Program-made: the position numbers and the translations under genes
The notes under the pieces: generated by a model
What the model was told of the DNA's origin: nothing
Database searches by the model: none
Seen by the model: only the letters and a program-made list of their open reading frames with translations
NCBI RefSeq assembly: GCF_902769175.1
Contig: NZ_CACXNW010000013.1
Span: 1-64,000 of the forward strand
From: an uncultured Methanobrevibacter sp.
Lineage (GTDB): Archaea; Methanobacteriota; Methanobacteria; Methanobacteriales; Methanobacteriaceae
Reading direction: 5' to 3'
DNA length: 64,000 bases
In this document: positions 5,102 to 59,526 of the stretch, one piece after another
Layout of the letters: every line of letters begins with the position of its first letter
Numbering within the stretch: position 1 is the stretch's first letter

Positions 5102-5106
5102 CAATC

Positions 5107-5215
5107 TTTTACAGTCCTTCGGACTGTAAAACCTTGACCAAAATATTTTTCATTGTTTGTATAGTTTCATGTCTTTGAAAAAATATTTTGATTAAGCTTT
5201 TTTTTTAAGTTTTGG
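5107..5215 (+). repeat. Dispersed two-hairpin element, copy A
   Basis: Six bases after the transglutaminase gene lies an 11-bp stem (5107-5117 with 5121-5131, loop TTC), followed by the conserved block ACCTTGACCAAAATATT and, at 5178-5215, a degenerate version of the distal AAGCTT...AAGTTTTGG arm. It belongs to a family also found at 9321, 11105 and 59421. It may act as a transcription terminator or as a 3'-UTR element. Confidence 0.7.
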
Positions 5216-5700
5216 GATCTTTTTAATTTTATTGTTTTTAGGGGCTTTGAAAACCTTTTTTAAAATTTAATTTTAAATCTTTTTAACATTAATTTTTAAA
5301 AATTTTTATATGAATTTATAGGATTTAACAAAGCCGATTTTAATCCATTTATTTTTTATTTTTTAAATTTTATTTTCATATTCTATTTTTTGTTTATTTA
5401 TTATGATTTTTATTTATTTTATCTAAAAATTAATTATTCTTCCTTATTTTAGAAAATGTGTTATTATCAATTTTATTTTTCAATTTTAGATATTTTTCTC
5501 AATTTTAAAAATTTTAGGTTATCCAAAACTTTATATACTTTCTCAATTAAATTATTATTATATTAAGCGATATTATATAATAACTGTTTTATCGGTTTAT
5601 TGGGTAATATTTGTACTTTTTAAATTAAATAAAATAAAAATATGAGAAAATAGTTAATTCGATTAATTAATAAAAACTTATAATTTGCCGGTGGTTATGC
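5216..5700. promoter_or_regulatory. AT-rich spacer with a probable promoter for the DtxR-family gene
   Basis: No gene is seen. A good archaeal promoter lies at 5523-5538: a purine-rich BRE-like CCAAAAC followed by TATA box TTTATATAC. Transcription would start near 5562, leaving a leader of about 140 bases before the regulator gene. The rest is T-rich sequence without recognisable structure. Confidence 0.5.
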
Positions 5701-6408
5701 ATGGCTAGGGAAATTAGTGATAACATTGAGGAGTATTTGGAAACTCTTTATAAATTCGGAAGCAAAGATTCATATGTGTCTACAACCACTCTCTCTAAAG
5801 AGTTAGGTATTGCACCAGGTAGTGTAACTCAGATGCTTAAAAAACTAGAGGATATTGGTTATATTGATTATATTCCTTATAAAGGGGCTAATTTAACAGA
5901 AGAAGGTAATAAGATAGCTCAAAAAATCACAAGAAAACACAGAATTCTTGAAAGATTCCTAAAGGATGTCTTAAAAATCAAAGATGAAAACCTTCATGCT
6001 CAAGCATGTGAAATGGAACATGCATTGTCTGATGAGGCTGAAAGAGCTATTTGTCATATGTTAGAGCATCCGGATACCTGTCCAGATGACCATTTGATTC
6101 CAGCATGTGACTTTGATTTTGCAAACTGTGAAGATTGTATAAATAGCCATAATGATATTGAAGAGATTGGCATAAGGGATTTCCATTTATTGTCTATATC
6201 TGAATTGTCACCTGGCGATGAAGGTGAAATATTGTTTATCAGAGGTGGAGACGCTTCCTTAAACAATGCCTTGAATGTTGGATTAAGCATTGGAACTAAA
6301 ATCAGAATAGCTGATTCTGACGATTCCAATAGATATAACATCTATTTGGAAGACACTTTAATCCCACTCTCAAGGGATTTGGCTAATAACATATTTCTTA
6401 AAATATAA
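5701..6408 (+). CDS. DtxR/MntR-family metal-dependent transcriptional regulator with FeoA-like C-terminus
   Basis: A 235-residue repressor of the DtxR/MntR family. Residues 1-65 are a winged helix-turn-helix (LSKELGIAPGSVTQMLKKLE). About 66-140 are the metal-binding dimerisation domain with His/Glu/Cys ligands (HRILERFL, CEMEHALSDEAE). About 160-235 are an SH3/FeoA-like domain (LSELSPGDEGEILFIRGG). The usual cPhGxpIP segment is replaced by a Cys-rich stretch, CPDDHLIPACDFDF followed by NCEDC, about residues 122-147, which could bind an extra metal. It probably represses iron or manganese uptake genes when metal is plentiful. The regulated genes are not in this window. GGTGG lies just before the ATG. 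Confidence 0.88.
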   Translation: MAREISDNIEEYLETLYKFGSKDSYVSTTTLSKELGIAPGSVTQMLKKLEDIGYIDYIPYKGANLTEEGNKIAQKITRKHRILERFLKDVLKIKDENLHAQACEMEHALSDEAERAICHMLEHPDTCPDDHLIPACDFDFANCEDCINSHNDIEEIGIRDFHLLSISELSPGDEGEILFIRGGDASLNNALNVGLSIGTKIRIADSDDSNRYNIYLEDTLIPLSRDLANNIFLKI

Positions 6409-6617
6409 ATACTAATTTATTATTTTTTAATTCCGATAATTTAGTTATTGCAACAGAATTTAACAAATGATTATTATTTCAAGCAATTATTAAATATGTC
6501 AAATAAAAAAGATTTATCTATATATTTAAAAAATTGAAAATATTAGTAATTATTTGTTTATTCATTTTTTTATTCTTTCTAATTTTATTTATTGCAGATT
6601 TTTATTCAGGTGTTTAA

Positions 6618-7133
6618 ATGCGCGGAGATTTATTTGAAGGTATTGTAACTGTCAAGATTGAAGAAGGCAATCAAAGGGCTGTTTCTCTCAATCAAAAAAG
6701 CCAGTTTGGAAAGTTATCTGAGAATTGTTTAGAACTTTCCCTTTTAGAGGCTTGCTATTTGATGGAAAGCGGACGTCTTGACATTTATGAAAACGACAAG
6801 AAATGTGATCTATCCTATATCATTGATCTAATCAAGGAAGATGAGGTCTACGGCAAATATTTGGTTTATAGAGATTTGAAAAACAGAGGATATATCATTA
6901 AGACAGGATTCAAGTATGGTTCTGAATTCAGGCTTTATGAAAGGGGAACCGGTCCAGGTCATGCACATTCAGATTTTTTAGTAAAGGTCTTGTATGAAAA
7001 AGAAGAAGTGAATGTATTAGACTTTGCAAGCTATGTAAGAGTATCACATGGCGTAAACAAGAAGCTATTGCTTGCAGTTGTAGATGATGATTTGGATGTT
7101 ACATACTATAACATAGAGTGGACAAGGCCATAA
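6618..7133 (+). CDS. endA: tRNA-intron endonuclease
   Basis: Cuts the bulge-helix-bulge motif at intron-exon junctions of archaeal pre-tRNA and pre-rRNA. The 171-residue length is that of the homotetrameric class. The C-terminal catalytic domain shows all three family residues: Tyr in FKYGSEFRLYERG, His in GPGHAHSDFLV and Lys in HGVNKKLLLAV. The N-terminal half (about 1-75) is the usual structural domain. It stands alone between the regulator and trpS, with a 209-bp AT-rich spacer upstream, so it probably has its own promoter. Confidence 0.93.
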   Translation: MRGDLFEGIVTVKIEEGNQRAVSLNQKSQFGKLSENCLELSLLEACYLMESGRLDIYENDKKCDLSYIIDLIKEDEVYGKYLVYRDLKNRGYIIKTGFKYGSEFRLYERGTGPGHAHSDFLVKVLYEKEEVNVLDFASYVRVSHGVNKKLLLAVVDDDLDVTYYNIEWTRP

Positions 7134-7437
7134 TTGATATTTTTAATTGTCCTATTTGGAGGTTATTTATTTAATCAGTGAATCAATAATTCTGATTATA
7201 GGGTTATTTATTTAATCAGTGAATCAATAATTCTGATTATAGGGTTATTTATATAAATCAGAAAATCATATTTAATTAATAGCAATATTTGTTTAATTAT
7301 AGGGTATTTTTCACTCAAAAATTAAAATTATTTTAATTAAAAATACCTATTATTATTTTAATGCTTATAGAAAATAACATATGAATTTTTATACGTTTAT
7401 TTAATTTAAAGAAAGATATTACATTTAAGGTGATTAT
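7134..7437. repeat. Gene-free spacer with 43-bp direct repeat
   Basis: A unit of about 43 bp (beginning GGTTATTTATTTAATCAGTG) is present twice in tandem at 7160-7244, and a third, partial copy starts at 7245. No gene is seen. The remainder is AT-rich sequence leading to GGTG, the probable ribosome-binding site of trpS, at about 7429-7432. Confidence 0.8.
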
Positions 7438-8529
7438 TTGATTGATCCATGGGGCTCATCTATAGTAGATTACGATAAATTATTCAATCAGTTTGGTATT
7501 AAAGATTTCTCTAAGCTTGTTGGGGATATTGAAGACCCTGCAAGATTGATGAAAAGGGGAGTTATCTTTGGACACAGAGATTTTGATAAGCTAGTTCCTT
7601 TGATAAACGGCAAAAAGGACTTTGGAGTCATGACAGGCATGATGCCAAGTGGTCAAATGCACATTGGTCACAAGATGGTTATTGACCAATTGAAATGGTA
7701 TGCTGAAAAAGGAGCTTCATTATCCTTATCCATTGCAGATATGGAATCATATGCTGCAAGGGGAATCAGCTTTGAAAAGGCTAAGGAAATAGCTGTCAAT
7801 GAATATTTGGCAAATTACATTGCCTTAGGCCTTGACTTGACTGCTGATAATGTGACTGTTTATCTTCAATCACAAAACAAGACTTTAAATGACTTGACAT
7901 TTAAGCTTGCAAAAAGAGTCAATTTCAATAATATGCATGCAATTTATGGATTTAATGAAAGCACTAACATTGCCCATTTGTATGTTCCATTAGTGCAGGT
8001 GGCAGATATTTTGCTTCCTCAAACTGAAGAGTTTGGCGGTCCAAAACAGGTTGTTGTACCTGTAGGAGTTGACCAAGACCCTCATTTAAGATTAACAAGG
8101 GACATTGCTGCTAAAATGAATGAAGAGTATGGATTCTTAGCTCCAGCTTCCACTTATCATAGGTTCTTAACTGGACTGACTGGAGATAAGATGTCAAGCA
8201 GCAAGCCTAATACTGCAATTTATTTAAATGAAACACCAAAGCAAGCTGAGAAAAAAGTAAAATCCTCTAAAACAGGTGGAAGAGAAACTCTTGATGAACA
8301 AAAGGAGTTAGGTGGAAGACCTGATGAATGTGTGATTTATGAAATACTTGTTTATCATTTGGTGGATGATGAAAAGGAACTTGGAAAGATTCGTGAAGAA
8401 TGTAAGAATGGAAGTCTTATGTGCGGTCATTGCAAGGTCCATGCAGCAGAATTGATGAAGGACTTCTTTGAAGACTTGAAAGTAAAGCAAGAGGAGTCTT
8501 TAGATATTGCTGAATCTTTATTTGATTAA
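7438..8529 (+). CDS. trpS: Tryptophanyl-tRNA synthetase
   Basis: Charges tRNA-Trp with tryptophan. It is a 363-residue class I synthetase of the archaeal/eukaryotic type. The HIGH signature is QMHIGHKMV (about residue 75) and the KMSKS loop is KMSSSKP (about 252). GVDQDPHLRLTRD is a typical TrpRS substrate-pocket segment. The start is taken as TTG 7438 (MIDPWGSS), because GGTG lies six bases upstream and family homology begins at once. The next gene begins 63 bp downstream. Confidence 0.95.
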   Translation: MIDPWGSSIVDYDKLFNQFGIKDFSKLVGDIEDPARLMKRGVIFGHRDFDKLVPLINGKKDFGVMTGMMPSGQMHIGHKMVIDQLKWYAEKGASLSLSIADMESYAARGISFEKAKEIAVNEYLANYIALGLDLTADNVTVYLQSQNKTLNDLTFKLAKRVNFNNMHAIYGFNESTNIAHLYVPLVQVADILLPQTEEFGGPKQVVVPVGVDQDPHLRLTRDIAAKMNEEYGFLAPASTYHRFLTGLTGDKMSSSKPNTAIYLNETPKQAEKKVKSSKTGGRETLDEQKELGGRPDECVIYEILVYHLVDDEKELGKIREECKNGSLMCGHCKVHAAELMKDFFEDLKVKQEESLDIAESLFD

Positions 8530-8592
8530 TCATATTTATAAAAAAGTTTAAAACTAGAAATTATGCAATAAAAACATTAGCGAGGTTATTTT

Positions 8593-9294
8593 ATGGCAGA
8601 TATAAAATATTATTTGAAGAGAGTTAAGGATGAAATCAAATCTGCATTTGTAAATAATAAAATACCTTTATTTATTTCAATCTTAATTTTTGTAATTCCA
8701 CTTATTATAGGATATTTCTATGCAGATCAGGTTGCTGAATATATAAAGCCTATGGTGGATTCATTTGAACAGAATGTTGAAAGTGGAACAGTGACTTTAA
8801 CAACTCACTCCCTATTTATCAATAATGTCAGTGTAGCTATTATAATATATGCTCTTTCAGCTCTTGGTGGAATATTAGGAGCAATTATTTTAGCTAATAA
8901 TGGATTATTCGTTGGTTTCTACGGTACAAAGTTAAACATTGTGCAATATTTGGCTTTAACTTTACCTCATGGAATATTTGAAATTCCTGCAATTATCATT
9001 GCTTCAACCGGTGGTTTTGTATTGCTTTTATTTGTACTTCGTTTCCTATGGGGTCTCATATCTCCAGATATGTCTTATTTGGATATCTTTGATCCATATT
9101 TCTCTGACGTAAAAATAACTTTAAGGCAAAGATTTGTTGCTTCATTTAATAAGAATAAAAGTAAGCTAAAGGAATCATTTGTTTTCTTATGTCTTGCTGT
9201 TGTTCTTTTAATTATTGCAGCATTCATTGAAGCAAATCTAACTATACCTATTGCTTATAAGATATTGCCATTTTTCGGAATAGGTATTCGTTAG
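8593..9294 (+). CDS. Stage II sporulation protein M-like (SpoIIM/DUF95) integral membrane protein
   Basis: A 233-residue membrane protein of the archaeal SpoIIM/DUF95 family. About five membrane segments are visible (near residues 26-44, 76-100, 115-150 as two helices, and 200-222). The family motif LPHGIFEIPAIIIA is clear, and an earlier ILANNGLFVGF segment also fits. In bacteria SpoIIM works in septal membrane remodelling; in archaea the function is unknown. It follows trpS closely and may be co-transcribed with it. A two-hairpin element follows. Confidence 0.85.
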   Translation: MADIKYYLKRVKDEIKSAFVNNKIPLFISILIFVIPLIIGYFYADQVAEYIKPMVDSFEQNVESGTVTLTTHSLFINNVSVAIIIYALSALGGILGAIILANNGLFVGFYGTKLNIVQYLALTLPHGIFEIPAIIIASTGGFVLLLFVLRFLWGLISPDMSYLDIFDPYFSDVKITLRQRFVASFNKNKSKLKESFVFLCLAVVLLIIAAFIEANLTIPIAYKILPFFGIGIR

Positions 9295-9320
9295 ACAATG
9301 ATTAAAACCATCTTTTTTGT

Positions 9321-9450
9321 CAAGCTTCACGGATTTTAGTCCGTAGAACCTTGACCCAAATTTTTTCCAAACTTTTAGAAAAAGTTTGATAATCTTTTTT
9401 TATTATTTAGATTCTAACTATTTGCAAACTTTTTAAAAAGTTTGATTAAA
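9321..9450 (+). repeat. Dispersed two-hairpin element, copy B
   Basis: CAAGCTTC leads into a 5-bp stem ACGGA/TCCGT (9329-9344) and then ACCTTGACCCAAATTTT, the conserved block of the family. The distal palindrome is present twice: about 9370-9390 with a three-base centre, and as a perfect 20-bp palindrome CAAACTTTTT/AAAAAGTTTG at 9425-9444. It lies just after the SpoIIM-like gene, in the same orientation. Confidence 0.7.
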
Positions 9451-9640
9451 AGATTTTTTATTATTTGGATTCTAACTACTCTTCTTTTTTTTTTATTCTC
9501 ATCACTTTTTAGAATACTTAACTTGAATTAAAATAAGTTTTTATAGTATGATGATTATAACTATATGATGTATATTAATTATAAGCTAATTATTTTCATG
9601 GTTTTATAATTAATTTATTGATTAAACACTGTTTTAACTA

Positions 9641-9830
9641 TTTTAAAAATGTTTAAAACTATTTTAAATGCTTAAAAGAATTTAAAAATGTTTAAAACTA
9701 TTTTAAATGCTTAATACAATTTTAAAAATGTTTAAAACTATTTTAAATGCTTAATACAATTTTAAAAATGTTTAAAACTATTTTAAATGCTTAATACAAT
9801 TTTAAAAGTGATTAAAACTACTTTAAACTA
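9641..9830. repeat. 40-bp tandem repeat in the thrC leader spacer
   Basis: A 40-bp unit (TTTAAAAATGTTTAAAACTA, then TTTTAAATGCTTAATACAAT) starts at about 9641, 9681, 9721 and 9761, with a degenerate fifth copy at 9801. The two middle copies are essentially identical. The gene-free spacer runs from 9295 to 9901; apart from this array and the two-hairpin element I see nothing in it. Confidence 0.85.
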
Positions 9831-9901
9831 TTTAAATTTATTAATGAATATTTTAATCTATTTAAAATTATTATTCATCAAAAAAACTTTAATGTGATAA
9901 A

Positions 9902-11098
9902 ATGATTAGATGTGTATCTTGTGGAGAAGAATACGAAGATGATGAAGTTATCTACAACTGTAAAAAATGTGGATCTGTTTTAGAAGTGGAAGTGGAAGTT
10001 GATGTTCCAAAATCTACTTTTGAAGGCAGAAGAGATAACTTATGGAAATATAAAGAATGCTTGCCTGTAGATGCAGATAAAAGAGTTTCCTTAGATGAAG
10101 GTGGAACTCCATTTTGCAAATGTGAAAAATTAGGTAAGGAACTTGGAATTGAACTTTATGTAAAAGTAGAAGGATCCAACCCTACTGGCAGTTTTAAGGA
10201 TAGGGGAATGACTATCGGTATGACTAAAGCTATGATGCTTGGTGTAGATACTGTAGGATGCGCTTCTACTGGAAATACTTCAGCTTCACTTGCTGCTTAT
10301 GCTGCAAGAGCTGGACTTAGATGTGCAGTATTCTTGCCTGCAGGTAAAGTTGCATTAGGAAAATTGGCTCAAGCTATGTTCCACGGTGCAGAAGTGTTCT
10401 CCATTAACGGTAACTTTGATGAAGCTTTAGAAGCAATGACCCAACTTGCTCGTGAAAAGCATTTATACTTATTGAATTCAATCAACCCATTCAGACTTGA
10501 AGGACAAAAGACCATCGGTTATGAAATCGTCCACTCATTAGGATGGGAATCTCCTGACAGGATTGTATTGCCTGTAGGAAATGCAGGAAACATTTCAGCT
10601 ATTTGGAAAGGTATCACTGAATTCCACAATGCTGGATTCATGGATGATGTTCCAATGATGGCTGGTATTCAAGCTGAAGGAGCTTGTCCTATTGCAAATG
10701 CATTCAGAGACAAAACTATGGACATGACTCCTGTGGAAAACCCTGAAACCATTGCAACTGCAATCCGTATTGGTGCTCCTGTAAGTGCTATTAAAGCATT
10801 AAGAGTTATTTATGATTCTAATGGTTTAGTTGAAACCGTAACTGATGAAGAAATCCTTGACGCTCAAAAATTGCTTGCAAGAACTGAAGGTGTCGGTGTA
10901 GAGCCAGCATCTGCAGCATCAATTGCAGGTCTTAAGAAATTGGTCGAACAAGGAGATGTAGACAAGGGAGAAAGAGTTGTTTGTGTTGTTACTGGACACT
11001 TGCTTAAAGATCCTAACACAGCTATTGATGCATGTGTTGAACCTGTCCAAGTAGATGCAGACATCAACAAGATTAAAGAGATTTTGCTTAACAAATAA
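9902..11098 (+). CDS. thrC: Threonine synthase
   Basis: Converts O-phosphohomoserine to threonine using pyridoxal phosphate, the last step of threonine synthesis. It is 398 residues long. The N-terminus carries a zinc ribbon, CVSCGEEY with CKKCGS, typical of archaeal ThrC. The PLP lysine lies in GSFKDRGMT (about residue 100). The phosphate-binding asparagine loop is STGNTSASLAAYAARAG, and PVGNAGNISA is a second cofactor loop. The gene stands alone, with a repeat-rich upstream spacer and a two-hairpin element right after the stop codon. Confidence 0.95.
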   Translation: MIRCVSCGEEYEDDEVIYNCKKCGSVLEVEVEVDVPKSTFEGRRDNLWKYKECLPVDADKRVSLDEGGTPFCKCEKLGKELGIELYVKVEGSNPTGSFKDRGMTIGMTKAMMLGVDTVGCASTGNTSASLAAYAARAGLRCAVFLPAGKVALGKLAQAMFHGAEVFSINGNFDEALEAMTQLAREKHLYLLNSINPFRLEGQKTIGYEIVHSLGWESPDRIVLPVGNAGNISAIWKGITEFHNAGFMDDVPMMAGIQAEGACPIANAFRDKTMDMTPVENPETIATAIRIGAPVSAIKALRVIYDSNGLVETVTDEEILDAQKLLARTEGVGVEPASAASIAGLKKLVEQGDVDKGERVVCVVTGHLLKDPNTAIDACVEPVQVDADINKIKEILLNK

Positions 11099-11104
11099 AC
11101 CTCC

Positions 11105-11216
11105 AAGCTTTTTGAGGCTTCGCCTCAAAAACCTTGACCAAAATATTTTATTTTCTGGTTATTTAGTTTTAAACCTTTTGAAAAAATATATTTGATCAAA
11201 CTTTTTAAAAGTTTGG
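11105..11216 (+). repeat. Dispersed two-hairpin element, copy C
   Basis: CAAGC, then a 10-bp stem TTTTTGAGGC/GCCTCAAAAA with loop TTC (11109-11131), the block ACCTTGACCAAAATATT, about 50 variable bases, then the distal palindrome CAAACTTTT/AAAAGTTTG (11197-11215). It is the cleanest full-length copy of the family and begins seven bases after the thrC stop codon. Confidence 0.75.
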
Positions 11217-11719
11217 AAATTTTTTTAGCAATCCTATCTTTTATAAATTTTGATATTTTTATAATATTTTTAACTCTCATTAGGGAGTGTATTTTTCTAT
11301 TTTTTAATATTTTTAAATCTCAATAGAATGTGTATTTTTCTATTTTTTTTTAATATTTTTAACTCTCATAAAGAGTGTATTCCTCTATTTTTTAATATTT
11401 TTCATTGATTTTGTATTATTATTCAATATTTTTAAATCTCATTAGAGAGGATATTTTTCTATTTTTTTTTTAATATTTTTCTTTTATTTTTTGATTTTTT
11501 TAATATTTTTTTATTATTTCTAATTTGTTAGAGTATTCTCTAATGAAATTTTGAAATTTTTTATATTTTTTGTTAAGATTTGATTTCAAAAATAATTAAA
11601 TTTTATTATAAATTATTAAAAGTTTAGTGTAAATGATTTTAAATTTTAAGCATTTTAATAGATATATTTATATATTAAAAAATATACAATTATTATTATA
11701 AAAATTTGAGGTGTTAAAT
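11217..11719. repeat. Spacer with AT-rich tandem repeats and the histone promoter
   Basis: Imperfect units beginning AATATTTTTAACTCTCAT start near 11263, 11306, 11352 and 11424. Each contains a short inverted pair (CTCTCAT...GAGTGT). No gene is seen. A probable TATA box, ATATTTATATATT, lies at 11664-11676, about 45 bases before the histone start. Confidence 0.7.
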
Positions 11720-13035: not shown

Positions 13036-13086
13036 GTATTGCGCCTTAGAAGATACATATCTTCAATATAATTAACAGGTGATAAT

Positions 13087-37702: not shown

Positions 37703-38890
37703 ATGATTAAAACTGATGTATTAGTTATTGGTGCAGGACCTGCTGGTTCCACTGCTGCAAGATTTGCAGCAAAAGGCGGGGCAAAAGTAATTCTCATGGA
37801 TAAGAAATCTGAAATCGGTGCTCCTAAAAGATGTGCAGAAGGAGTTTCCAAAAGAACCTTTGAAATCTTAGAGCTTGAAGCAGATCCTCATTGGATTACC
37901 CAAGAAATTGAAGGTATAAGATTAATTGCTCCTGATGGAACTGATGTATGGCTTACTAATGATGTAGTTGAATTGCCTGAAGCAGGTTACATCTTAGAAA
38001 GAAAGGTCTTTGACAAACACTTAGCTATGGAAGCAGGTAGAGAAGGAGTAGAAATCAGAATCAAAACCCAAGCAAAAGGTCTTAAAAAAGAAGAAGACGG
38101 ATCATACACTGTTACCTGTGAATGTATGGGTGAAGTTTACGACATTAATGCTAAAATCCTTATCGGTGCAGACGGTTCTGAAAGTCATGTAGCTAAATGG
38201 GCAGGACTTAAAGCTATCACCAAACCTAAACACATGGAAGCTGGTGTACAGTTTGAAATGTGTAATGCTAAAATGGAAAGAAATTATGTTCTTGAGTTCT
38301 ACTTCGGTAGCGTAGCTCCTGGTGGTTACTTCTGGCTTTTCCCTAAAGGAGACGATATCGTAAATGCAGGACTTGCTATCATTCCTGAAATGGCTGAAAA
38401 ATCTGCATATGAATACTTGGTTGATGCTGTAAACAACTGTTATGCACTTAAGGATGCTCAACCTGTTGAATTGAATGTAGGTGGAGACCCTGTTGGCGGA
38501 CTTGTTAAGGAAATGTACAATGACAACATTATGCTTTGTGGAGATGCTGCAAGCCAAGTTAACCCATTAACCGGTGGAGGAATTACCAGTGGTATTACTG
38601 GTGGTAAGTTAGCTGGTCAAACAGCTGCTGAAGCTATTGCGGCAGGAGACTGCTCTAAAAAATTCCTTAAGAAATATGCTGAATTGGTTGACGAAGCTAT
38701 GGGTCACGTTATGGATAAATACAGCAAAGCTTGTGACTACTTATGGAGCTTAGACGACGATGACTTAAACAGCATTGCTCATGCTTTCAGAGGTCTTGAG
38801 TTTACCACACTTGGTACTACTGAACTTGTTAAGGCTTTAATTAAAGTTCAACCAAGTGCAGCTTTAAAATTACGTAAATTGTTCTTATAA
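37703..38890 (+). CDS. Digeranylgeranylglycerophospholipid reductase
   Basis: A 395-residue flavoprotein of the geranylgeranyl reductase family. It saturates the isoprenoid chains of archaeal membrane lipids. The N-terminal FAD Rossmann motif is VIGAGPAGSTAARFAAKGG. KRCAEGVSKRTFE is a family signature, and the second FAD motif is GDAASQVNPLTGGGITSGI. YFGSVAPGGYFWLFP lines the substrate cavity. It is preceded at 21 bp by a ferredoxin gene. A hairpin follows the stop codon. Confidence 0.93.
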   Translation: MIKTDVLVIGAGPAGSTAARFAAKGGAKVILMDKKSEIGAPKRCAEGVSKRTFEILELEADPHWITQEIEGIRLIAPDGTDVWLTNDVVELPEAGYILERKVFDKHLAMEAGREGVEIRIKTQAKGLKKEEDGSYTVTCECMGEVYDINAKILIGADGSESHVAKWAGLKAITKPKHMEAGVQFEMCNAKMERNYVLEFYFGSVAPGGYFWLFPKGDDIVNAGLAIIPEMAEKSAYEYLVDAVNNCYALKDAQPVELNVGGDPVGGLVKEMYNDNIMLCGDAASQVNPLTGGGITSGITGGKLAGQTAAEAIAAGDCSKKFLKKYAELVDEAMGHVMDKYSKACDYLWSLDDDDLNSIAHAFRGLEFTTLGTTELVKALIKVQPSAALKLRKLFL

Positions 38891-38896
38891 TTTGGC

Positions 38897-38923
38897 TTTT
38901 CAATTGCCTTTGGCAATGAAAAC
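38897..38923 (+). terminator. Hairpin after the lipid reductase gene
   Basis: TTTTCAATTGCC and GGCAATGAAAA pair around a TTT loop, with one mismatch, seven bases after the stop codon. The following CCGGAACCAAAATTCTTTTC weakly resembles the conserved block of the two-hairpin element family. It could be a diverged member. Confidence 0.55.
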
Positions 38924-39353
38924 CGGAACCAAAATTCTTTTCACATAGTGGAAGGAATTTCTTTTTTTATTTTCTATTTTTTTTTAAATTTTTTATTCAG
39001 TTTTTATTTTCATTTAGTTTTTTTTTTATTCTTTTTTTATTCAGTTTTTATTTCATTTCAGTTTTTTTATTCTTATTTATTCAGTTTTTATTTCATTTCA
39101 GTTTTTTTATTCTTATTTATTCAGTATTAATTTCATTTCATTTTTATTAAATTCTTATTACTTATTTCACTTTTTTTCTAATAATTTTCCTTTATTTTAT
39201 AAAATAAATGATAAAAGTTAAATATAAATTAAAATAAAGATATAATTAATATAATTAATAAAACATAGAAACTAAATTAATTTTTAAAATTAAATGAGGA
39301 ATAAATGTCTTATTGATTTTTAAAATAAGAAAATTATTAACTTTTGTGATATT
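38924..39353. repeat. Gene-free T-rich spacer with 40-bp tandem repeat
   Basis: TCAGTTTTTATTTCATTTCA recurs with a 40-bp period at 39041, 39081 and, diverged, at 39121, with a shorter copy near 38997. An open frame through it (38948-39130) encodes only Phe/Tyr/Ser low complexity and is not a gene. Confidence 0.75.
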
Positions 39354-41803: not shown

Positions 41804-42257
41804 ATATTAACTTTTTTTATCTTTTTTATCTTTTTCATGCCCTTATTTTTAATTAATTTATTTTTAGTTATTTTTTTATCTTTTTCATGCCCTTATTTTT
41901 AATTAATTTATTTTTAGTATTTTTTTTGAATTATTTTATTTGCTGTATTTTTATTATAAATTATTTTTTAAATTTTTCATTCATTCATTTTTAAATTTTT
42001 TTCTAAAAAACATTATTATTTTTTTTGAATTATTTTATTTGCTGTATTTTTATTATTAATTATTTTTTAAATTTTTCATTCATTCATTTTTAAATTTTTT
42101 TCTAAAAAACATTATTATAAATATTAGAAAAATTATAAATATTTACATATGATTTTTAACTTAATTGTTTTTTTTAAGTAAGATTAATATTATATTCATT
42201 GAATTATAATTATTAAAAATTTTTTATTGTCTTAATAGGGTTAATGGAGATTAAATA
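41804..42257. repeat. Gene-free spacer with 50-bp and 99-bp duplications
   Basis: A 50-bp-period direct repeat around TTTTTCATGCCCTTATTTTT occurs at 41831 and 41881. It is followed by a 99-bp-period duplication (about 41918-42016 and 42017-42116) containing TTCATTCATTCATTTTTAAA. Copies differ by only a few bases. No gene is seen. Confidence 0.85.
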
Positions 42258-46101: not shown

Positions 46102-46496
46102 AGATTTATTATTTCATTTTTTATTAATTTTTAATATTCTTAAATTTCTTTTTTATGTTTTTTTTTTAATTATTTTGAAGATTAAATACTTTTATTCAAA
46201 TCTGATTTTTTTAATATTTTTTTTTAAATTCATACTTTTTAATATATAATTAGACTGAACTGATATGCTCAAATCATTTAATTTTTTTTTAAATTCATAC
46301 TTTTTAATATATAATTAAACTGAACTGATATGCTCAAATCATTTAATTTTTTGAAAAAATAGTAATTTTTATGTATAATTTAAAGAAAATTCCCAATTTT
46401 ATTATTTACATTTAAATAGTAGTACTTATATAGTAATAATGTCTGAAAAGATATTATTAAATTAAAAATATAAAATTAATTTTTTAGGTGTTAAAT
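46102..46496. repeat. Gene-free spacer with 65-bp tandem duplication
   Basis: About 46222-46286 and 46287-46351 are near-identical 65-bp copies containing CTGAACTGATATGCTCAAAT. A TATA-like TACTTATATAGT lies at about 46425-46436, some 60 bases before the DUF4013 gene. No gene is seen. Confidence 0.8.
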
Positions 46497-51920: not shown

Positions 51921-51941
51921 ATTGATTGGAAAGGTGTTTTA

Positions 51942-52913: not shown

Positions 52914-52974
52914 TTATCTTCAATTTCCTTTTTTTTTAGCTGATTATAATATTTTTTATTTCTCAAGTGATAGA

Positions 52975-53655: not shown

Positions 53656-53994
53656 TTTTGAATTATTTTAGTTCTTATTCTTTTTTTTTATTGTTTTATT
53701 TTTTTATTTTAAATTATTTTTATTCTTTTTTTAATAGTTTTAAATAGATATTTTATTTTTTTAATTAGTTTTTTCATAATTTATTTTTTTATTAGTTTAT
53801 TTTTTTAAAAATAGTTTTTTTAGTTAGTTTTTTCATAATGTAATTTTTAATTAGTTTATTTATTAAAAAAAGAGAGAATAATAGTTTAAAATTAAAAAAA
53901 GATTATTTAAGTAAAAAAATATAAAATGATAGTTTAAAATTAAAAAAATTATTCTAAATAAAAAAAAAGAAAAAAAGTTAAAAGAAATAGCCAT
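53656..53994. repeat. Gene-free T-rich and A-rich spacer between convergent genes
   Basis: AGTTTTTTCATAAT and its surroundings recur at about 53767 and 53826 (period about 59 bp). Downstream the strand changes to A-rich runs. Lying between two converging genes, it probably holds terminators for both, as T runs on each strand. No gene is seen. Confidence 0.65.
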
Positions 53995-55035
53995 TTACAA
54001 ATAATTTGCAAAATCATCTATTAACTTATCAATATAGTCCAATCTAGCTATTTGTTCTAACTAATGTTGAGGAATATTGTCATATCCATAATAGATTCCA
54101 GCTAAACCCCCAGCAATTGCAGCAGTTGTATCAGTATCCTGACCTAAATTAACAGCTGCCAAAGCAGTTTCCTTATAGGAATCATTATTTAAAAGACACC
54201 AAAGTGCTGCTTGAAGTGAAGCAACTACATATCCTCGACCTTCAATGACTGATTTTGGAGTCTCTTTAATGTTTTCATCAAATATGCCATAAAAATAAGG
54301 CATTGTCTCTTTAAACTCATCATTGTTTTCATAGTATTCCTTAGCTAATTGAATTCCATTATTGACAGCTTCATCTAAGCTTAGATTTTTATCTTCAAAA
54401 CTGTTTTTCAACAATTCAATAGCTATTAAAACATATGTTCCACAGGACATTCTACTTCTTCTTGGCCCGTGGGTCAATGATGAAAGGTTATGGATTGCCT
54501 TCATCTTATCATCATCTGAAAATGAGTATTTCCTGGACAAAAAGTAAATGAAGTATGCAATAGGTAAAATTCTCATTAAAGAGCCGTTACCATTATCAGT
54601 GGGGTTTGTTCCTCCACAGGATATTGGTTCAATTCCTGCTTTATAATTGCATATTCCGTCAGCAGTTGTTCCTCCATAGTCAAAAACTTCATCATATGGA
54701 GTGAATCTTGCCTTAAAGAACCAAGCAGCAAAGTTTTTCATGATTTCATTATAATCAATGATTTCTAAAATGTCTATTTCAGAACCTTCTTCTCGAAGGT
54801 CATCTTCATTGACTCTTAATGAATAAGTCAATCCATCTACAGTGGCTAAAGTCATGGAACTGTCATCTGACCAAGTTCCAGGTGGCTGATTGTATGTTCC
54901 ATAGCCAATCATGTCTGTCATAGGTTCTCCCTCACATTTTTCTTTAGAACTGAACTCATATGGAACTCCTAATGCATCAGCTACAACAAGACCAAAAATA
55001 CCGCTTTTTGCCAAATAATTAATCTTTTCATCCAT
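53995..55035 (-). pseudogene. ADP-ribosylglycohydrolase with an in-frame amber codon near the end
   Basis: A DraG/ARH-family hydrolase that removes ADP-ribose from proteins or related substrates. The first 324 residues (55035 to 54064) contain the paired metal-binding motifs: GTWSDDSSMTLA near residue 54, and LGQDTDTTAAIAGGLAG near 297, with GNGSLMR between. Translation stops at TAG (54063-54061) after NIPQH, but the same frame continues for 21 codons (LEQIARLDYIDKLIDDFANY plus L) to a TAA at 53997-53995. That tail resembles the normal family C-terminus, in which Trp often occupies the stop position; TGG to TAG is one base. All catalytic residues precede the stop, so the shortened 324-residue protein may still work. 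Confidence 0.8.
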
Positions 55036-55326
55036 AATAAAATCCCCCTTTATACTCTTATCTTATATTCATTCAACATTTGATTATTTTTTTTTAAAAA
55101 CAATCATTCACTAATTATAAGCACACAATAATTTATAAAGGTTTTTAATTATAATTATAAAAGTTTCCAATTATAAATGTTAGTAATTCATAGCTATTTA
55201 GGGGTATAAATGAATTTAATCAAAAAAAGCAATAATTAAATAGATAAAGTTTAAGTATAAATAAATTATAAATACTTAATAGGAATATAATATTATATTA
55301 AATTACTATTTTAATTAGGTAAAAAT
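55036..55326. other. Divergent promoter region
   Basis: This spacer separates the minus-strand ADP-ribosylglycohydrolase from the plus-strand ABC permease gene, so it should hold promoters for both. It is AT-rich; a TATA-like ATTATAAATACTTA lies near 55265 on the plus strand. No gene is seen. Confidence 0.45.
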
Positions 55327-56106
55327 ATGACGTTAGAAATACTAAAAAAAGGAACTAGTGAAAATTTCTTGCTAAAGCAAATAATTAAAAAGAATTTCAC
55401 ATCCAAATACAAAGATTCATTCATTGGAGTTCTTTGGAGTTTCTTAAATCCATTGATAGAAATGGCTTTATTAACTGCAATTTTCTCAGCAGTATTTGCA
55501 AGGAGTATTGAAAATTTCCCAGTTTACTTCTTAACAGGAAGAATTGTTATTAATTTCTTCAATAGTGGAACAAAAATCGCTATGAGGTCAATTAAAGCAA
55601 ATAGGAGTATTTTTAATAAGATTTTTATACCTAGATATATTTTTGCCCTTGGTGGAATATGTTCAGAATTCCTGAATTTCCTAATGTCTGTAATTGTATT
55701 GATTGCAATAATGATTTTGACACAAGCACCATTCTATGCTATGGCACTATTTTCAGTAATTCCTATCGCAGTATTGTTCTTATTGATTACTGGAATAGGC
55801 TTAATCTTGGCAATTGTTTGTACCAAATTCACAGACATAGAATATTTATATAAAATTTTCACATCATTATTAATCTATGCTTGTGCGATATTTTATCCTA
55901 TAACAAGCGTTCCTCAACCTATAAGGGGATATATGGAATTAAATCCAGTTTATGGAATCATTGCACAATTCAGATCTTTTGTTATGGAAGGACAGTTCCC
56001 ATCAGCTAGCTTAATGTTAACTACATTTGCAATTTCTCTTGTTATTTTCATAATAGGAGTATTGGTATTCCGCAAATATCAAGATAGAATTACTTTAGAA
56101 TTATAA
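55327..56106 (+). CDS. ABC-2 type polysaccharide export permease
   Basis: A 259-residue integral membrane protein with six predicted helices. The N-terminal amphipathic KKNFTSKYKDSFIGVLWSFL is typical of Wzm/TagG-type permeases, and so is the end FRKYQDRITLEL. NPLIEMALLTAIFSAVFAR begins helix 1; ACAIFYPITSVPQ and MELNPVYGIIAQFRSF are conserved in the family. With the ATPase 99 bp downstream it would export a lipid-linked surface glycan or teichoic-acid-like polymer. Confidence 0.92.
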   Translation: MTLEILKKGTSENFLLKQIIKKNFTSKYKDSFIGVLWSFLNPLIEMALLTAIFSAVFARSIENFPVYFLTGRIVINFFNSGTKIAMRSIKANRSIFNKIFIPRYIFALGGICSEFLNFLMSVIVLIAIMILTQAPFYAMALFSVIPIAVLFLLITGIGLILAIVCTKFTDIEYLYKIFTSLLIYACAIFYPITSVPQPIRGYMELNPVYGIIAQFRSFVMEGQFPSASLMLTTFAISLVIFIIGVLVFRKYQDRITLEL

Positions 56107-56205
56107 TTTAAAAGGGGATTTAAAAAAGAAATCAACTGAAACAAAATAAAAAATTTACAATTAATCAATATTATTTAAAAATAAAATAAAAAATGGAGGG
56201 ATCAT

Positions 56206-57456
56206 ATGGATAACGAAAAAACTGAAGTTAAAAAAATCAAAACTCAAATCATACCAGCTATTCATAACACTGTCTCTCTACAATTTTATTTAAGAACAGA
56301 AGATGGAAAGCCTATTGCTAATGAAGAAGTTGTCTATAACCTTTTAAGGGAAACAGGAGAGATAAGTAATTCATATAGGCAAATTACCAATGAAGAAGGT
56401 AAGGTTCACTTAACCCTTAACCTAAAGGGTGACACAATCATACAATTATTGTATGAGGGAAGTGACAAATACGAAAAAGCTAAAGTAAATACCTTTAGAG
56501 TAAGACCTTCAAAAGAAGAGAAAGAATTGAAAAACGGTCACCCTTACCAAGTTAGAAGAAGAGAAGAAGCTCAAAAGAAAAAAGAAGAAGCTAAAAAGGA
56601 AAAAGAAGCAGCAAAATTAAGGAAAATTGAGGAATTTGCTGAAGCTCAAAATCAATTGCAGACTGTTGGTGATGATAATGTTGCAATTGAATTGAGAAAT
56701 GTTTCCCTAAGCTTTAAAATAGGTAAGGACAAGATTGATAACCTAAAGGAATATGTTATCAGAACCATTAATAGAACCAAGGAAAAGAAAACCATCTTTA
56801 AGGCAACAGATAATGTTTCATTTAAAATTTATAAAGGTGAAAAGGTAGGAATTATCGGTTTTAACGGTGCTGGAAAAAGTACATTGCTTAAGATCATTTC
56901 AGGTGTATACACTCCAGATGAAGGAGAAGTTATTGTAAATGGAAATATAGCACCTTTACTGTCCTTAGGAGCTGGATTCGATAAGAATTACTCTGGAAGA
57001 GAAAACATATTTTTAAATGGAGCGATTCTTGGATATAATGAAAAATTCCTAAATGAAAAATACGATGAAATCCTTGAATTCTCAGAGCTTGGAGAATTTA
57101 TCAACTTGCCTGTTAAAAACTATTCTTCAGGTATGCTATCAAAACTTGGATTTTCAATAGCAACCATTGTAGATCCTGATATTCTCATTCTTGATGAAGT
57201 TCTTGGAGTAGGAGACATCACTTTCAGAGAAAAAAGTAGAGAAAAGCTTCAATCATTAATGGCATCAAACACTACTGTATTGCTTGTTTCCCACTCAATT
57301 AGAGAAATTAGAAACATTTGTGATAAAGCAATTTGGATTGAAAAAGGTAGAGTGAGAGCTGTTGGTGAAGTAGATGCCATTTGTGATGAGTATGAAGATG
57401 AAGCTCAAAATGTGAGCAAAGAAAAAACCAAAAAGCTCAAACCACAAAGATTCTAA
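56206..57456 (+). CDS. Polysaccharide-export ABC ATPase with N-terminal Ig-like domain
   Basis: A 416-residue ATPase partner of the preceding permease. The nucleotide-binding domain (about 155-395) has Walker A GFNGAGKSTLLK, signature YSSGMLSKLGF, Walker B DILILDEVLGVGD and the switch His in LVSHS, matching Wzt/TagH-type transporters. Unusually, residues about 10-105 form an Ig-like/Big-type domain (TEDGKPIANEEVVYNLL, TNEEGKVHLTLNLKGDTIIQ, LYEGSDKYEKAK) like those in secreted adhesins. A highly charged Lys/Glu helix (about 118-150) links it to the ATPase. No signal peptide precedes the Ig-like part, so it should be cytoplasmic. Wzt proteins often carry a C-terminal sugar-binding domain; here the extra domain is N-terminal. 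Confidence 0.9.
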   Translation: MDNEKTEVKKIKTQIIPAIHNTVSLQFYLRTEDGKPIANEEVVYNLLRETGEISNSYRQITNEEGKVHLTLNLKGDTIIQLLYEGSDKYEKAKVNTFRVRPSKEEKELKNGHPYQVRRREEAQKKKEEAKKEKEAAKLRKIEEFAEAQNQLQTVGDDNVAIELRNVSLSFKIGKDKIDNLKEYVIRTINRTKEKKTIFKATDNVSFKIYKGEKVGIIGFNGAGKSTLLKIISGVYTPDEGEVIVNGNIAPLLSLGAGFDKNYSGRENIFLNGAILGYNEKFLNEKYDEILEFSELGEFINLPVKNYSSGMLSKLGFSIATIVDPDILILDEVLGVGDITFREKSREKLQSLMASNTTVLLVSHSIREIRNICDKAIWIEKGRVRAVGEVDAICDEYEDEAQNVSKEKTKKLKPQRF

Positions 57457-57460
57457 TTAT

Positions 57461-57482
57461 TTAGCTATTTTACAATAGCTAA
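57461..57482 (+). terminator. Hairpin after the ABC ATPase gene
   Basis: TTAGCTATT (57461-57469) and AATAGCTAA (57474-57482) form a 9-bp stem with a four-base loop, five bases after the stop codon, followed by a T run. It is a likely 3' end or terminator. Confidence 0.65.
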
Positions 57483-57861
57483 AACTATTTTTTAATTTTT
57501 AAATAATTAAGAACTATTTTAAAAAACTATTATATGATTTAAAACTCTATAAAAATGTTATTTTTTAAAATATCTTATTTTTAAATTAATTTTTTTATTC
57601 TTCTATCTTTCAATGCCATTTTTTATATTTCTATCATATTTTATTCTTCTATTTTTCAATGCCATTTTTTATATTTTCATCATCATTTTATTCTTCTATT
57701 TTTCAATACTATTTTTTATATATCCGTCATCATTCTAGCTATTGAAGTTAGTTTATAATTGAAAATTTTCATCTCAATCATCTATTCAAAATTAAATTAT
57801 ATTAATAATGACAAACAATATTATATTAATAAAATAATTTTAAAATTTAAGGAGAGATATA
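57483..57861. repeat. Gene-free spacer with 46-bp tandem repeat
   Basis: Three units beginning TTTTATTCTTCTAT and containing TTTCAATGCCATTTTTTATA start near 57594, 57640 and 57686. No gene is seen. GGAGAG before ATG 57862 is the ribosome-binding site of the Cys-rich peptide gene. Confidence 0.8.
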
Positions 57862-58080
57862 ATGAAATTTGAAGACCTTATTGCAAAATGTCCAAAATGT
57901 GGATCTACTGATAAAACTGCTCATAGGAGATTTATTGATAATCATCATGCACATGCTGAATTAAAAGAGTTCAAATGTGATAATTGCGGATATGTTTTTG
58001 AAACTGGAAGGGATAAGGAAAAATCTGAAGATGAAACAATTAAAAAAGAACTTATCACGGAATTAAATAAGAAATTATAA
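57862..58080 (+). CDS. Small Cys-rich (zinc-ribbon-like) peptide paired with radical-SAM enzyme
   Basis: A 72-residue protein: AKCPKCGSTDKTAHRRFIDN, a His-rich centre (NHHAHAEL), then KCDNCGYVF and a charged Lys/Glu tail. The two CxxC pairs could be a zinc ribbon. It lies 75 bp before a SPASM radical-SAM gene. From memory, methanogens carry a conserved pair of this sort (small Cys-rich peptides of the TIGR04165 type beside TIGR04083 radical-SAM enzymes), in which the peptide is the suspected substrate. The pairing is seen here; the modification is inferred. Confidence 0.75.
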   Translation: MKFEDLIAKCPKCGSTDKTAHRRFIDNHHAHAELKEFKCDNCGYVFETGRDKEKSEDETIKKELITELNKKL

Positions 58081-58155
58081 TTTATATTTGATTCAAAAAA
58101 GATAATTTTTTTATTTCTTAATTTTAAGTGCATAAATTTATTTTAGAGGGATTAA

Positions 58156-59295
58156 ATGACTTTTCATGTAATGATTATATCTACTTTAGGATGTCCATCT
58201 AATTGTTCCTATTGTTGGGGTTCTGAAGAAAATGCAGAATTGATGGATATTGATGTAATCAATCAAATTGTTAAATGGTTAGCTAATTTTAGAGATGAGC
58301 CTGTACATTTCACATTCCATGGTGGAGAACCTTTGCTTGCAGGTTATGAATTCTATGAAAAGGCCCTCCCTTTGCTTAATGATGCTACAACCCATGAAAC
58401 TGAAGGTTTTTCATTACAGAGCAACTTATGGCTGTTGGATGAAGAAATGGCTGACTTATTCTCAAACTATAATATAGCTATCAGTACAAGCATTGATGGT
58501 CCTAAGGAAATCAATGATTATCAAAGAGGAGAAGGCTATTTTGATAAAACCATGAAATCAGTTAAATTAGCTACTGATAAAGGCATCCAAATCAATTTTG
58601 TATGTACATTCACTTCATACTCTAAGGATTTTTCAGATGAAATCTATGATTTCTTTAAGGAAAATGGATTGAATTTAAAGATACATGCTGCTTTGCCATC
58701 ATTACGTGGAGATAATGCAGACCCATGGGCACTTCATCAGGATGAACATGGAAAATTATTGATTGATTGGCTAGATAAATACCTTTATGATTTGGACAAG
58801 TTTGTAATTATGGACTTGGACCATATTGCAAAAAGCAGCCTTAGAAGAGTTGGAACATTATGCACTTTCAATGATTGTATGGGAACTACCCTTGCTGTAG
58901 GTCATGACGGTTCAATTTATCCTTGCTATCGTTTTGTTGGAATGGATGAATACATTATGGGCAATGTTTATGATGAGCCTTCAATGGAAGACCTTGAGAA
59001 GTCTGAGGCATGGGAAAAGTTGATGGAATTCAAGAATTTTGTTGATGAGGACTGTGCAGACTGTAAGTTCATTAAGTTCTGCAGAGGCGGATGCCCTTAT
59101 AATGGTATTGTTGCCACCCAGTCTCCAAAAGCTGTTGATCCTCAATGTGAAGCTTACAAGATGATATTTGGAGAGGTTTCCAGAAGAGCGAATGAAGACT
59201 TTAAGAAAAATGCTATGGCTGCATTTGGTGGCGCTCCAAGAGTTAGAAATGAAGGAGACCCATTTTCCATTATGGATTTGATGACAAAATTATAA
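58156..59295 (+). CDS. SPASM-domain radical-SAM protein, probable peptide-modifying or sulfatase-maturase-like enzyme
   Basis: A 379-residue radical-SAM enzyme. The [4Fe-4S]-SAM motif is CPSNCSYC (about residue 13), and FHGGEPLLAG is the SAM-binding GGE motif. STSIDGP is typical of the anSME/peptide-maturase group. The SPASM region contributes further cysteines: CTFNDCMG, YPCYRF and CADCKFIKFCRGGCPYNG. Relatives oxidise or cross-link residues in proteins or small peptides. The upstream Cys-rich peptide gene is the obvious candidate substrate. A tandem array and a two-hairpin element follow the stop codon directly. Confidence 0.88.
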   Translation: MTFHVMIISTLGCPSNCSYCWGSEENAELMDIDVINQIVKWLANFRDEPVHFTFHGGEPLLAGYEFYEKALPLLNDATTHETEGFSLQSNLWLLDEEMADLFSNYNIAISTSIDGPKEINDYQRGEGYFDKTMKSVKLATDKGIQINFVCTFTSYSKDFSDEIYDFFKENGLNLKIHAALPSLRGDNADPWALHQDEHGKLLIDWLDKYLYDLDKFVIMDLDHIAKSSLRRVGTLCTFNDCMGTTLAVGHDGSIYPCYRFVGMDEYIMGNVYDEPSMEDLEKSEAWEKLMEFKNFVDEDCADCKFIKFCRGGCPYNGIVATQSPKAVDPQCEAYKMIFGEVSRRANEDFKKNAMAAFGGAPRVRNEGDPFSIMDLMTKL

Positions 59296-59427
59296 CCAAG
59301 CTTTTGACCCAAGCTTTTGGCCCAAGCTTTTGGCCCAAGCTTTTGGCCCAAGCTTTTGGCCCAAGCTTTTGGCCCAAGCTTTTGGCCCAAGCTTTTGGCC
59401 CAAGCTGCCCAAGCTTTTGGCCCAAGC
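59296..59427 (+). repeat. 13-bp tandem array, about 11 copies
   Basis: The unit GCCCAAGCTTTTG, with a HindIII-type AAGCTT core, is repeated about eleven times; most copies are perfect, one (about 59401) is shortened. It runs from the radical-SAM stop codon into hairpin 1 of the adjoining two-hairpin element, whose lead-in CCAAGCTTTTT is the last unit. It looks like a local expansion of the element's own lead-in. Open frames across it encode only a repetitive Gly/Pro/Lys/Ala/Trp string and are not genes. Confidence 0.9.
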
Positions 59428-59526
59428 TTTTTGAGCCTGCGGCTCAAAAACCTTGACCAAAATATTTTTCATGGGTTTTTAGTGGAAGCCTTAGGAAAAT
59501 TATTTTGATTAAACTTTTAAAGTTTG
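59421..59526 (+). repeat. Dispersed two-hairpin element, copy D
   Basis: A 10-bp stem TTTTTGAGCC/GGCTCAAAAA with loop TGC (59428-59450), the block CCTTGACCAAAATATTTTTC, a variable stretch, then the distal palindrome AAACTTT/AAAGTTT (59511-59525). It has the same orientation and order as copies A to C. The gene-free spacer to 59763 holds nothing else I can identify. Confidence 0.75.

What the first reader, a model, noticed from the sequence alone, without database searches (positions are those of the whole stretch)
5107..59526. A dispersed two-hairpin element follows four genes in the same orientation
Copies at 5107, 9321, 11105 and 59421 share an order: CAAGC lead-in (not in copy A), a hairpin whose stem sequence differs in every copy (ACAGTCC, ACGGA, TTTTTGAGGC, TTTTTGAGCC, each with its exact complement), the block ACCTTGACCAAAATATT, a variable spacer, then a distal palindrome like CAAACTTTTT/AAAAAGTTTG. 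Stem sequences vary while pairing is kept, implying selection on RNA structure. Each copy lies within about 150 bases after a stop codon on the plus strand. A diverged fifth may lie at 38897. This fits a 3'-UTR or terminator family, or a small mobile repeat that prefers gene ends.
Basis: partly seen in the sequence, partly recalled or inferred. Interest (0 to 1): 0.72.

Follow-up and report, generated by a model that had tools for sequence, protein, structure and literature searches.

The report
Archaeal hairpin marking gene 3' ends
A short hairpin with a fixed frame, an exchangeable stem and an unpaired tail sits right after stop codons (and some tRNA genes) in Methanobrevibacter, and the same frame turns up after tRNA genes in distant archaea, so it looks like a scattered, REP-like element that may mark or protect transcript ends.

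Summary
The four copies are real; a fifth, diverged one lies at 38888. The unit is one framed hairpin, not two: CAAGC-TTTT-[variable stem, triloop]-AAAA-CCTTG, then unpaired ACCAAAAT. The distal palindrome is an optional second subtype (CAAAC..GTTTG-ATCAAAA), in 3 of 112 copies by a strict pattern. The host genome has 62 places at E<1e-5; 16 of 18 same-genus genomes have at least one match. Of 128 G-subtype copies examined, 80 start within 12 nt after a sense gene end and none that near an opposite-strand end. Pairing is largely kept over 55 distinct hairpins, but stems are recurring modules, often different at orthologous gene ends, and the element is present or absent between species. At one gene it supplies the last codons and the stop. 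A tail base co-varies with a stem pair. The frame and this code also occur in Altiarchaeota, a Nanoarchaeota-type phylum and Thermococcus-like genomes; 29 of 314 copies directly follow tRNA 3' ends. Y1/RAYT transposase was found in 0 of 19 genus genomes. Best reading: a REP-like dispersed palindrome kept as a transcribed 3'-end stem-loop before T-rich terminator sequence. Transcription, RNA ends and the mover are untested; RNA and DNA selection were not separated.

The parts
5102..5152 (+). Copy A: hairpin 5102-5136 (CAATC TTTTACAGTCC TTC GGACTGTAAAA C CTTG) plus tail ACCAAAATATTTTTCA; starts directly after TAA 5099-5101
   Evidence: (E=5.2e-15)
9321..9367 (+). Copy B: hairpin 9321-9353 plus tail ACCCAAATTTTTTC; 26 nt after the stop of ORF 8593-9294
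   Evidence: E=1.3e-10
9368..9388 (+). A-subtype hairpin CAAACTTTTAGAAAAAGTTTG with degenerate tail ATAATC, directly after copy B
9425..9452 (+). Second A-subtype hairpin CAAACTTTTTAAAAAGTTTG plus ATTAAAAG, within a 58-bp tandem duplication 9364-9478
11104..11155 (+). Copy C: hairpin 11104-11136 plus tail ACCAAAATATTTTATTTTC; 5 nt after the stop of ORF 9902-11098
   Evidence: E=6.9e-17
11183..11215 (-). Distal A-subtype palindrome in reverse orientation (AAAATATATTTGAT upstream of CAAACTTTTTAAAAGTTTG)
38891..38937 (+). Diverged copy E: TTTGG-C-TTTTC..GAAAA-CCGGA then ACCAAAATTC, directly after TAA 38888-38890
   Evidence: E=1.1e-4
59296..59422 (+). Tandem 5' units (CCAAGCTTTTGGC-like repeats of the 5' arm), starting directly after the stop of ORF 58156-59295
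59423..59471 (+). Copy D: hairpin 59423-59455 plus tail ACCAAAATATTTTTCA
   Evidence: E=2.7e-17
59510..59526 (-). Distal short A-subtype-like palindrome TAAACTTTTAAAGTTTG with its tail-like TTTTGAT on the upstream side
3479..5101 (+). Upstream gene of copy A: transglutaminase core with Ig-like domain
8593..9294 (+). Upstream gene of copy B: SpoIIM-family protein
9902..11098 (+). Upstream gene of copy C: PLP-dependent enzyme (threonine synthase is my inference)
37703..38890 (+). Upstream gene of copy E: geranylgeranyl-reductase-like FAD protein
58156..59295 (+). Upstream gene of copy D: radical SAM / SPASM protein

Best explanation
It is a dispersed, REP-like archaeal palindrome: a hairpin with a fixed foot (N-AARC-TTTT .. 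AAAA-x-YTT-N'), an exchangeable stem and triloop, and a conserved unpaired tail AYCAAAA. In Methanobrevibacter it is kept directly behind the end of a gene, in the sense direction, usually with T-rich sequence behind it. I infer that it is transcribed as the first part of the 3' UTR (or tRNA trailer) and works as a 3'-end stem-loop that, together with the U-tracts behind it, helps to fix the RNA 3' end and shields the message from 3'-to-5' decay. Shown: anatomy, pairing, sense position at gene ends in this genus, presence/absence between species, stem differences at orthologous places, one gene end whose last codons and stop lie in the element. Inferred: transcription, action on termination or stability, insertion as the direction of change, and how copies spread (agent unknown; no Y1/RAYT found).
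For: Position: 80 of 128 G-subtype copies start <=12 nt after a sense gene end, 0 of 128 that near an opposite-strand end. Of 149 occurrences parsed (tandem 5' units of one array counted apart), 128 had an upstream ORF and 84 of these start 0-6 nt after the stop. Of 11 G-subtype copies without a detected stop, two follow tRNA-Val genes, one is at a contig start, four (L017, L098, L132, L150) take their stop from the element. tRNAs: 29 of 314 copies start within 15 nt after a tRNA 3' end in sense, none faces an opposite-strand tRNA 3' end or lies before a tRNA 5' end at that distance (introns allowed). Ends: 103 of 107 element-bearing gene ends are convergent or >=100 nt from the next co-directional gene, against 320 of 428 without (p=5e-8); T6 within 60 nt in 78% of 115 against 52% of 319 comparable element-less ends. 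A T5 begins a median 3 nt after the CAAA of the tail. Structure: 96.3% of cells paired, 174 double changes against 50 shuffled. Orthologous places with the element in both: stems not identical in 41 of 52 pairs, a few of them differing by one to three letters. Element supplying codons and stop in 4 genomes, not in G016. Upstream genes look unrelated in function.
Against: No RNA data. The hairpin is not followed directly by a U-run. Absent at the same gene in related species (element after 2 of 15 genus orthologues of the copy-C gene read) and nearly absent in whole genera, so not essential. G.T/A.C test neutral. By a cruder ORF caller the nearest upstream ORF was antisense in 0 of 38 own, 3 of 23 relative and 5 of 77 other genus copies, and 4 of 138 fell inside a predicted ORF. 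Outside the genus the habit is weaker: Altiarchaeota 16 of 39 within 12 nt of a sense end but also 6 of 39 near an opposite-strand ORF end; Nanoarchaeota-type loci 6 of 44; G032 0 of 16, in ~93-bp intergenic repeats; 61 of 69 Thermococcus-like copies are not behind a tRNA and only some have a sense gene upstream.
Confidence: 0.5

Rival explanations
1. A selfish single-strand-DNA palindrome (REP / PATE-like): a nuclease recognises the hairpin foot and the tail and moves or copies it; gene ends are merely where insertion does no harm. The stem-tail co-variation would be a guide/target match.
For: Tail base Y2 follows stem pair R-Y1: concordant in 38 of 39 Altiarchaeota, 63 of 68 Thermococcus-like and 132 of 135 Methanobrevibacter copies, against 21.3, 42.8 and 122.6 expected (p 2e-9, 9e-11, 4e-7; copies are not independent). 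Patchy across genera. Recurring stem modules. Tandem units. Gene-end indel. REPs carry an unpaired tag at one end and GTAG REPs often provide the stop codon (PMC3733652, passages).
Against: Y1_Tnp in 0 of 19 genus genomes and in 3 of 12 other carriers; TnpB zinc ribbon over cut-off in 1 of 19. Neutral insertion does not predict 80 of 128 next to a sense end and 0 of 128 next to an opposite-strand end.
Confidence: 0.3
2. An ordinary hairpin terminator or 3' stem-loop reached repeatedly by convergence, with no common origin.
For: Gene-end placement and T-rich sequence behind it; the 60 nt behind the element are more structured than the 60 nt behind element-less ends (mean z -1.6 of 114 against -0.5 of a sample of 120; letter shuffles; the element-less set includes unfiltered ORFs).
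Against: Foot and unpaired ACCAAAA tail are nearly invariant, reversed-pattern controls are near zero and orthologues share the position.
Confidence: 0.08
3. A translation-level element: a stem-loop next to the stop codon slows or stalls the terminating ribosome, as reported for E. coli REPs within 15 nt of the stop.
For: Start 2-3 nt after the stop at the median (3 nt in relatives, 15 nt in the own genome where tandem units precede the hairpin). The RepRanger paper cites stop-proximal REPs stalling ribosomes (PMC12306157, passages).
Against: The same frame follows tRNA genes, which are not translated.
Confidence: 0.07
4. A DNA-binding site (nucleoid protein, silencer or insulator) with dyad symmetry, independent of RNA.
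For: Fixed foot and tail; dispersed intergenic copies in both orientations in G032 and Thermococcus-like loci.
Against: Sense placement at gene ends in Methanobrevibacter.
Confidence: 0.05

Closest known systems
REP sequences (GTAG- and CGTC-tagged palindromes) with RAYT transposases
   Same: Short palindromic hairpin with an unpaired conserved tag at one end, many copies, clusters, often close to or supplying stop codons (PMC3733652, passages)
   Different: Tag is AYCAAAA (TTTTGRT on the other strand), not GTAG or CGTC; Y1/RAYT found in 0 of 19 genus genomes; sense orientation behind gene ends in Methanobrevibacter; archaeal
PATEs and IS605-type palindromic termini of Haloquadratum
   Same: Archaeal, transposase-free palindrome elements with a conserved end oligonucleotide (PMC3119063, passages)
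   Different: IS605 machinery almost not found in the genus; the unit here is shorter and tied to gene ends; similarity of ends not compared
Archaeal U-tract terminators with aCPSF1
   Same: T-rich sequence lies behind the element in most copies
   Different: Those do not strictly require an upstream hairpin (PMC8716108, passages); here a conserved hairpin and tail precede the tract
Bacterial intrinsic terminators
   Same: Hairpin after the stop codon, T-runs downstream
   Different: A conserved, unpaired ACCAAAAT stretch separates hairpin and T-run

Membership tests
REP/RAYT | Unpaired GTAG or CGTC tetranucleotide at one end | tested here: not met
   Tail is ACCAAAA or ATCAAAA
REP/RAYT | Y1 (HUH) tyrosine transposase in the genome | tested here: not met
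   0 of 19 genus genomes; control rings in 5 of 14; found in 3 of 12 other carriers
REP/RAYT | Extragenic palindrome in many copies | tested here: met
   62 places at E<1e-5 in the own genome
IS605-type / PATE | TnpA/TnpB genes in the carrier | tested here: not met
   Y1 0 of 19; TnpB zinc ribbon over cut-off 1 of 19
IS605-type / PATE | Sequence similarity to IS605 ends | not tested
   No comparison was run
Intrinsic terminator | Hairpin followed directly by a U-run | tested here: not met
   ACCAAAA intervenes; T5 starts a median 3 nt after its CAAA, T6 within 60 nt in 78% of 115
Intrinsic terminator | RNA 3' ends map at the element | not testable with these tools
   No transcript data
Known Rfam family | Match at or above gathering score | tested here: not met
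   Window: only a tRNA. Permissive search of 7 loci: tRNAs and one sub-threshold match lying on a tRNA
MITE | Terminal inverted repeats and target duplication | tested here: inconclusive
   Oppositely oriented pairs in copies C and D; target duplications could not be judged in the empty/filled pairs seen

The most novel reading that the evidence does not exclude
A widespread archaeal stem-loop, N-AARC-TTTT..AAAA-x-YTT-N' with tail AYCAAAA, in which a tail base reads a stem pair (T with A-T, C with G-C, as in a base triple or a guide/target contact), is a recognised 3'-end mark of transcripts (mRNAs in Methanobrevibacter; tRNAs in Altiarchaeota, Thermococcus-like archaea and Methanobrevibacter) and spreads by an unknown, non-Y1 mechanism.
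Probability: 0.3. Interest if true: 0.82.

Novelty: new variant of a known kind. Interest (0 to 1): 0.63.

Why it matters
Archaeal transcript ends are described mainly by U-tracts, without a required hairpin. A widespread, sequence-tagged stem-loop tied to gene and tRNA ends would add a layer to 3'-end formation or mRNA stability in rumen methanogens and other archaea. It is also a REP-like family without its usual transposase, which makes the question of what moves such palindromes testable.

Tried and rejected
REP/RAYT or IS200/IS605 as the mover: not found in the genus, in 3 of 12 other carriers. Known RNA family: none. Uptake-type motif without hairpin: 28 of 29 hits of the 17-mer in the own genome lie next to a hairpin. 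Regulon: upstream genes look unrelated (synthetases, FtsZ, GlmS, S8e, aquaporin, adhesin-like); these names were read by eye from translations, only 5 carrier genes of the window were family-searched. Viral carriage: 0 viral contigs for the G-subtype pattern, 1 for an A-subtype pattern. G.T against A.C asymmetry as a test for RNA: neutral. Tree of the copy-C gene: G001 and G014 (1 and 0 copies) group at 97/99, most other forks are open; gain or loss is not resolved. The idea that the element must hug the stop because the T-tract starts there: fits the copy-C gene but among 691 element-less ORF ends the first T5 lies at a median of 68 nt (that set has unfiltered ORFs, so it is a weak test).

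Literature: the motif letters occur in 13 papers, by their titles unrelated (listing); no paper holds all four of Methanobrevibacter, palindromic, intergenic, hairpin; other searches (listings). The library lacks most subscription journals and all preprints of its own kind. The M. ruminantium genome paper PMC2812497 has no hit for palindrom, terminat, intergenic, hairpin or stem-loop (passages). P. abyssi ncRNA repeats (PMC3124441, section 8 and passages) were considered; not compared by sequence. PMC13107129 (Rep-Arvir) and PMC13155455 (hairpins across genomes), passages only, PMC3491384 passages: no match to this element seen.

Recalled, from no call: G011 (2,937,203 bp) as M. ruminantium M1 and G494 (2,088,737 bp) as T. 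kodakarensis, both by size; the group of G052 as Thermococcales; threonine synthase; features of REP guide contacts.
Full report
What is there. The window is contig 13 of a 3.12-Mb, 65-contig genome. Loci with the same pattern in a named collection are Methanobrevibacter in 68 of 72 stretches; the other four are Altiarchaeota (3) and Woesearchaeota (1) MAGs. Four copies are as described, and a fifth at 38888-38944 scores E=1.1e-4. Folding gives CAAG paired with CTTG, a C.C mismatch, TTTT/AAAA, a variable stem and mostly a TTC triloop, then an unpaired ACCAAAAT tail. The C.C mismatch is kept in 129 of 135 Methanobrevibacter copies.

Not chance. 29 hits at <=2 mismatches against 3 for the reversed pattern. 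A covariance model from 28 copies finds 62 places at E<1e-5 in the own genome and 85 at E<=0.01, four of these being antisense echoes of other copies (77 with the stricter filter). Of 60 genomes searched, the own one included, 23 have a match at E<=0.01; 16 of 18 other same-genus genomes do, from 1 (G001) and 4 (G013) up to 85 (G011); G014 and G017 have none.

Pairing. On 114 distinct rows 96.3% of cells pair; 174 double changes against 50 in shuffles; covariation 0.282 against 0.078 shuffled and at most 0.030 in slid controls (the alignment was fitted to the model, so it leans that way). 115 parsed copies have 55 distinct inner hairpins with 506 of 543 pairs formed; swapping arms between hairpins lowers pairing outside the TTTT/AAAA frame from 0.92 to 0.69. 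But the same stem modules recur at many loci. Where orthologous gene ends both carry the element the hairpin is identical in 11 of 52 pairs, against 65 of 712 within-genome pairs and 193 of 4186 other pairs: orthologues share more than chance, so there is some inheritance, yet most differ, many by the whole stem and a few by one to three letters. The double changes are therefore not so many independent events. G.T and A.C intermediates are 7 and 4, which does not separate RNA from DNA.

Place. Of 128 G-subtype Methanobrevibacter copies, 115 have a sense feature end within 150 nt upstream and 80 within 12 nt; opposite-strand ends 21 and 0. With a cruder ORF caller the nearest upstream ORF is sense in 38 of 38 own copies, 20 of 23 in relatives and 69 of 77 in other genus loci, antisense in 0, 3 and 5. 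Element-bearing ends look like ends of transcription units (103 of 107 against 320 of 428 without; loci were fetched because they hold a copy). T6 follows within 60 nt in 78% of 115, against 52% of 319 comparable element-less ends.

Coming and going. Of 15 genus orthologues of the copy-C gene read, only G000 and G011 carry the element; in the others the stop is followed by T-rich or AT-rich sequence. Of 435 orthologue-like pairs, 64 have it on both sides, 51 on one, 320 on none; presence was judged by tail letters, so a diverged copy as in L100 counts as absent, and the ORF set was not filtered for shadow frames. In L030, L063, L065 and L132 the frame ends ..KDKLL-TAG inside the element, whereas G016 ends ..KDSL-TAA without it; I read this as insertion, but loss in G016 is not excluded.

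Beyond the genus. The frame AARCTTTT-N3..30-AAAANYTTNAYCAAAA occurs in 29 of 151 genomes of the own phylum (5 reversed-pattern matches), 6 of 10 in the Altiarchaeota group (0), 45 of 279 in the phylum of the Woesearchaeota MAG (3; many have one or two copies) and 66 of 115 in the group of G052 (0), which I take for Thermococcales. The outer base pair varies and mostly stays paired: Altiarchaeota 39 of 39, Nanoarchaeota-type 18 of 20, Thermococcus-like 63 of 68. Three positions co-vary: stem G-C with tail ACC, stem A-T with tail ATC. The tail base lies outside the helix; T with A-T and C with G-C is what a base triple or a guide/target contact would give (inference). 29 of 314 copies start within 15 nt after a tRNA 3' end in sense: 18 of 39 Altiarchaeota, 8 of 69 Thermococcus-like, 3 of 144 Methanobrevibacter, 0 of 44 Nanoarchaeota-type, 0 of 17 other Methanobacteriaceae; none faces an opposite tRNA end or lies on a 5' side (tRNA introns allowed). 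These come from loci fetched for their copies, not from whole genomes.

Against a universal gene-end habit: in Altiarchaeota 6 of 39 copies lie within 12 nt of an opposite-strand ORF end; in G032 the motif sits in ~93-bp intergenic repeats, 0 of 16 near gene ends; in Nanoarchaeota-type loci 6 of 44 are near a sense end; most Thermococcus-like copies lie in other intergenic settings and 12 of 68 inside a predicted ORF.

Mover. Y1_Tnp was found in 0 of 19 genus genomes and 3 of 12 other carriers; TnpB is almost absent from the genus. No known mover was found.

Reading. A REP-like dispersed palindrome kept as a transcribed 3'-end stem-loop is the most likely reading (0.5), a purely selfish single-strand palindrome the next (0.3). 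The re-check of counts changed wording but not these odds.

Noticed in passing
59296-59431: Tandem array of about ten CCAAGCTTTTGGC-like units before copy D; more than one CAAGCTT unit in 22 of 112 copies, 11 of 31 in this genome. The units look like hairpins that lost their stem.
   Followed up: partly
L266-L276 (G032): The A-subtype frame sits in ~93-bp intergenic repeats, often tandem, in another Methanobacteriaceae genus.
   Followed up: partly
L313-L353: Thermococcus-like genomes carry the frame in longer recurring intergenic contexts (e.g. GCCAGCGCT..GAAGCTTTTGGAAAAAGCTTCACCAAAAGTTTGTAGCTC) in both orientations.
   Followed up: no
L164, L167: Altiarchaeota: head-to-tail units hairpin-ACCAAAA that start on the last bases of tRNA genes.
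   Followed up: partly
L123 (about base 862 on the - strand): One G-subtype copy without a gene or tRNA end found upstream.
   Followed up: no
L262: Single A-subtype copy on a 40-kb viral contig, 65 nt after a stop.
   Followed up: no
window 3136-3325, 9640-9868, 41914-42118, 46216-46380 and others: Many AT-rich tandem repeats of about 40-100 bp (120 overlapping TRF rows), by the ORF list mostly between genes.
   Followed up: no
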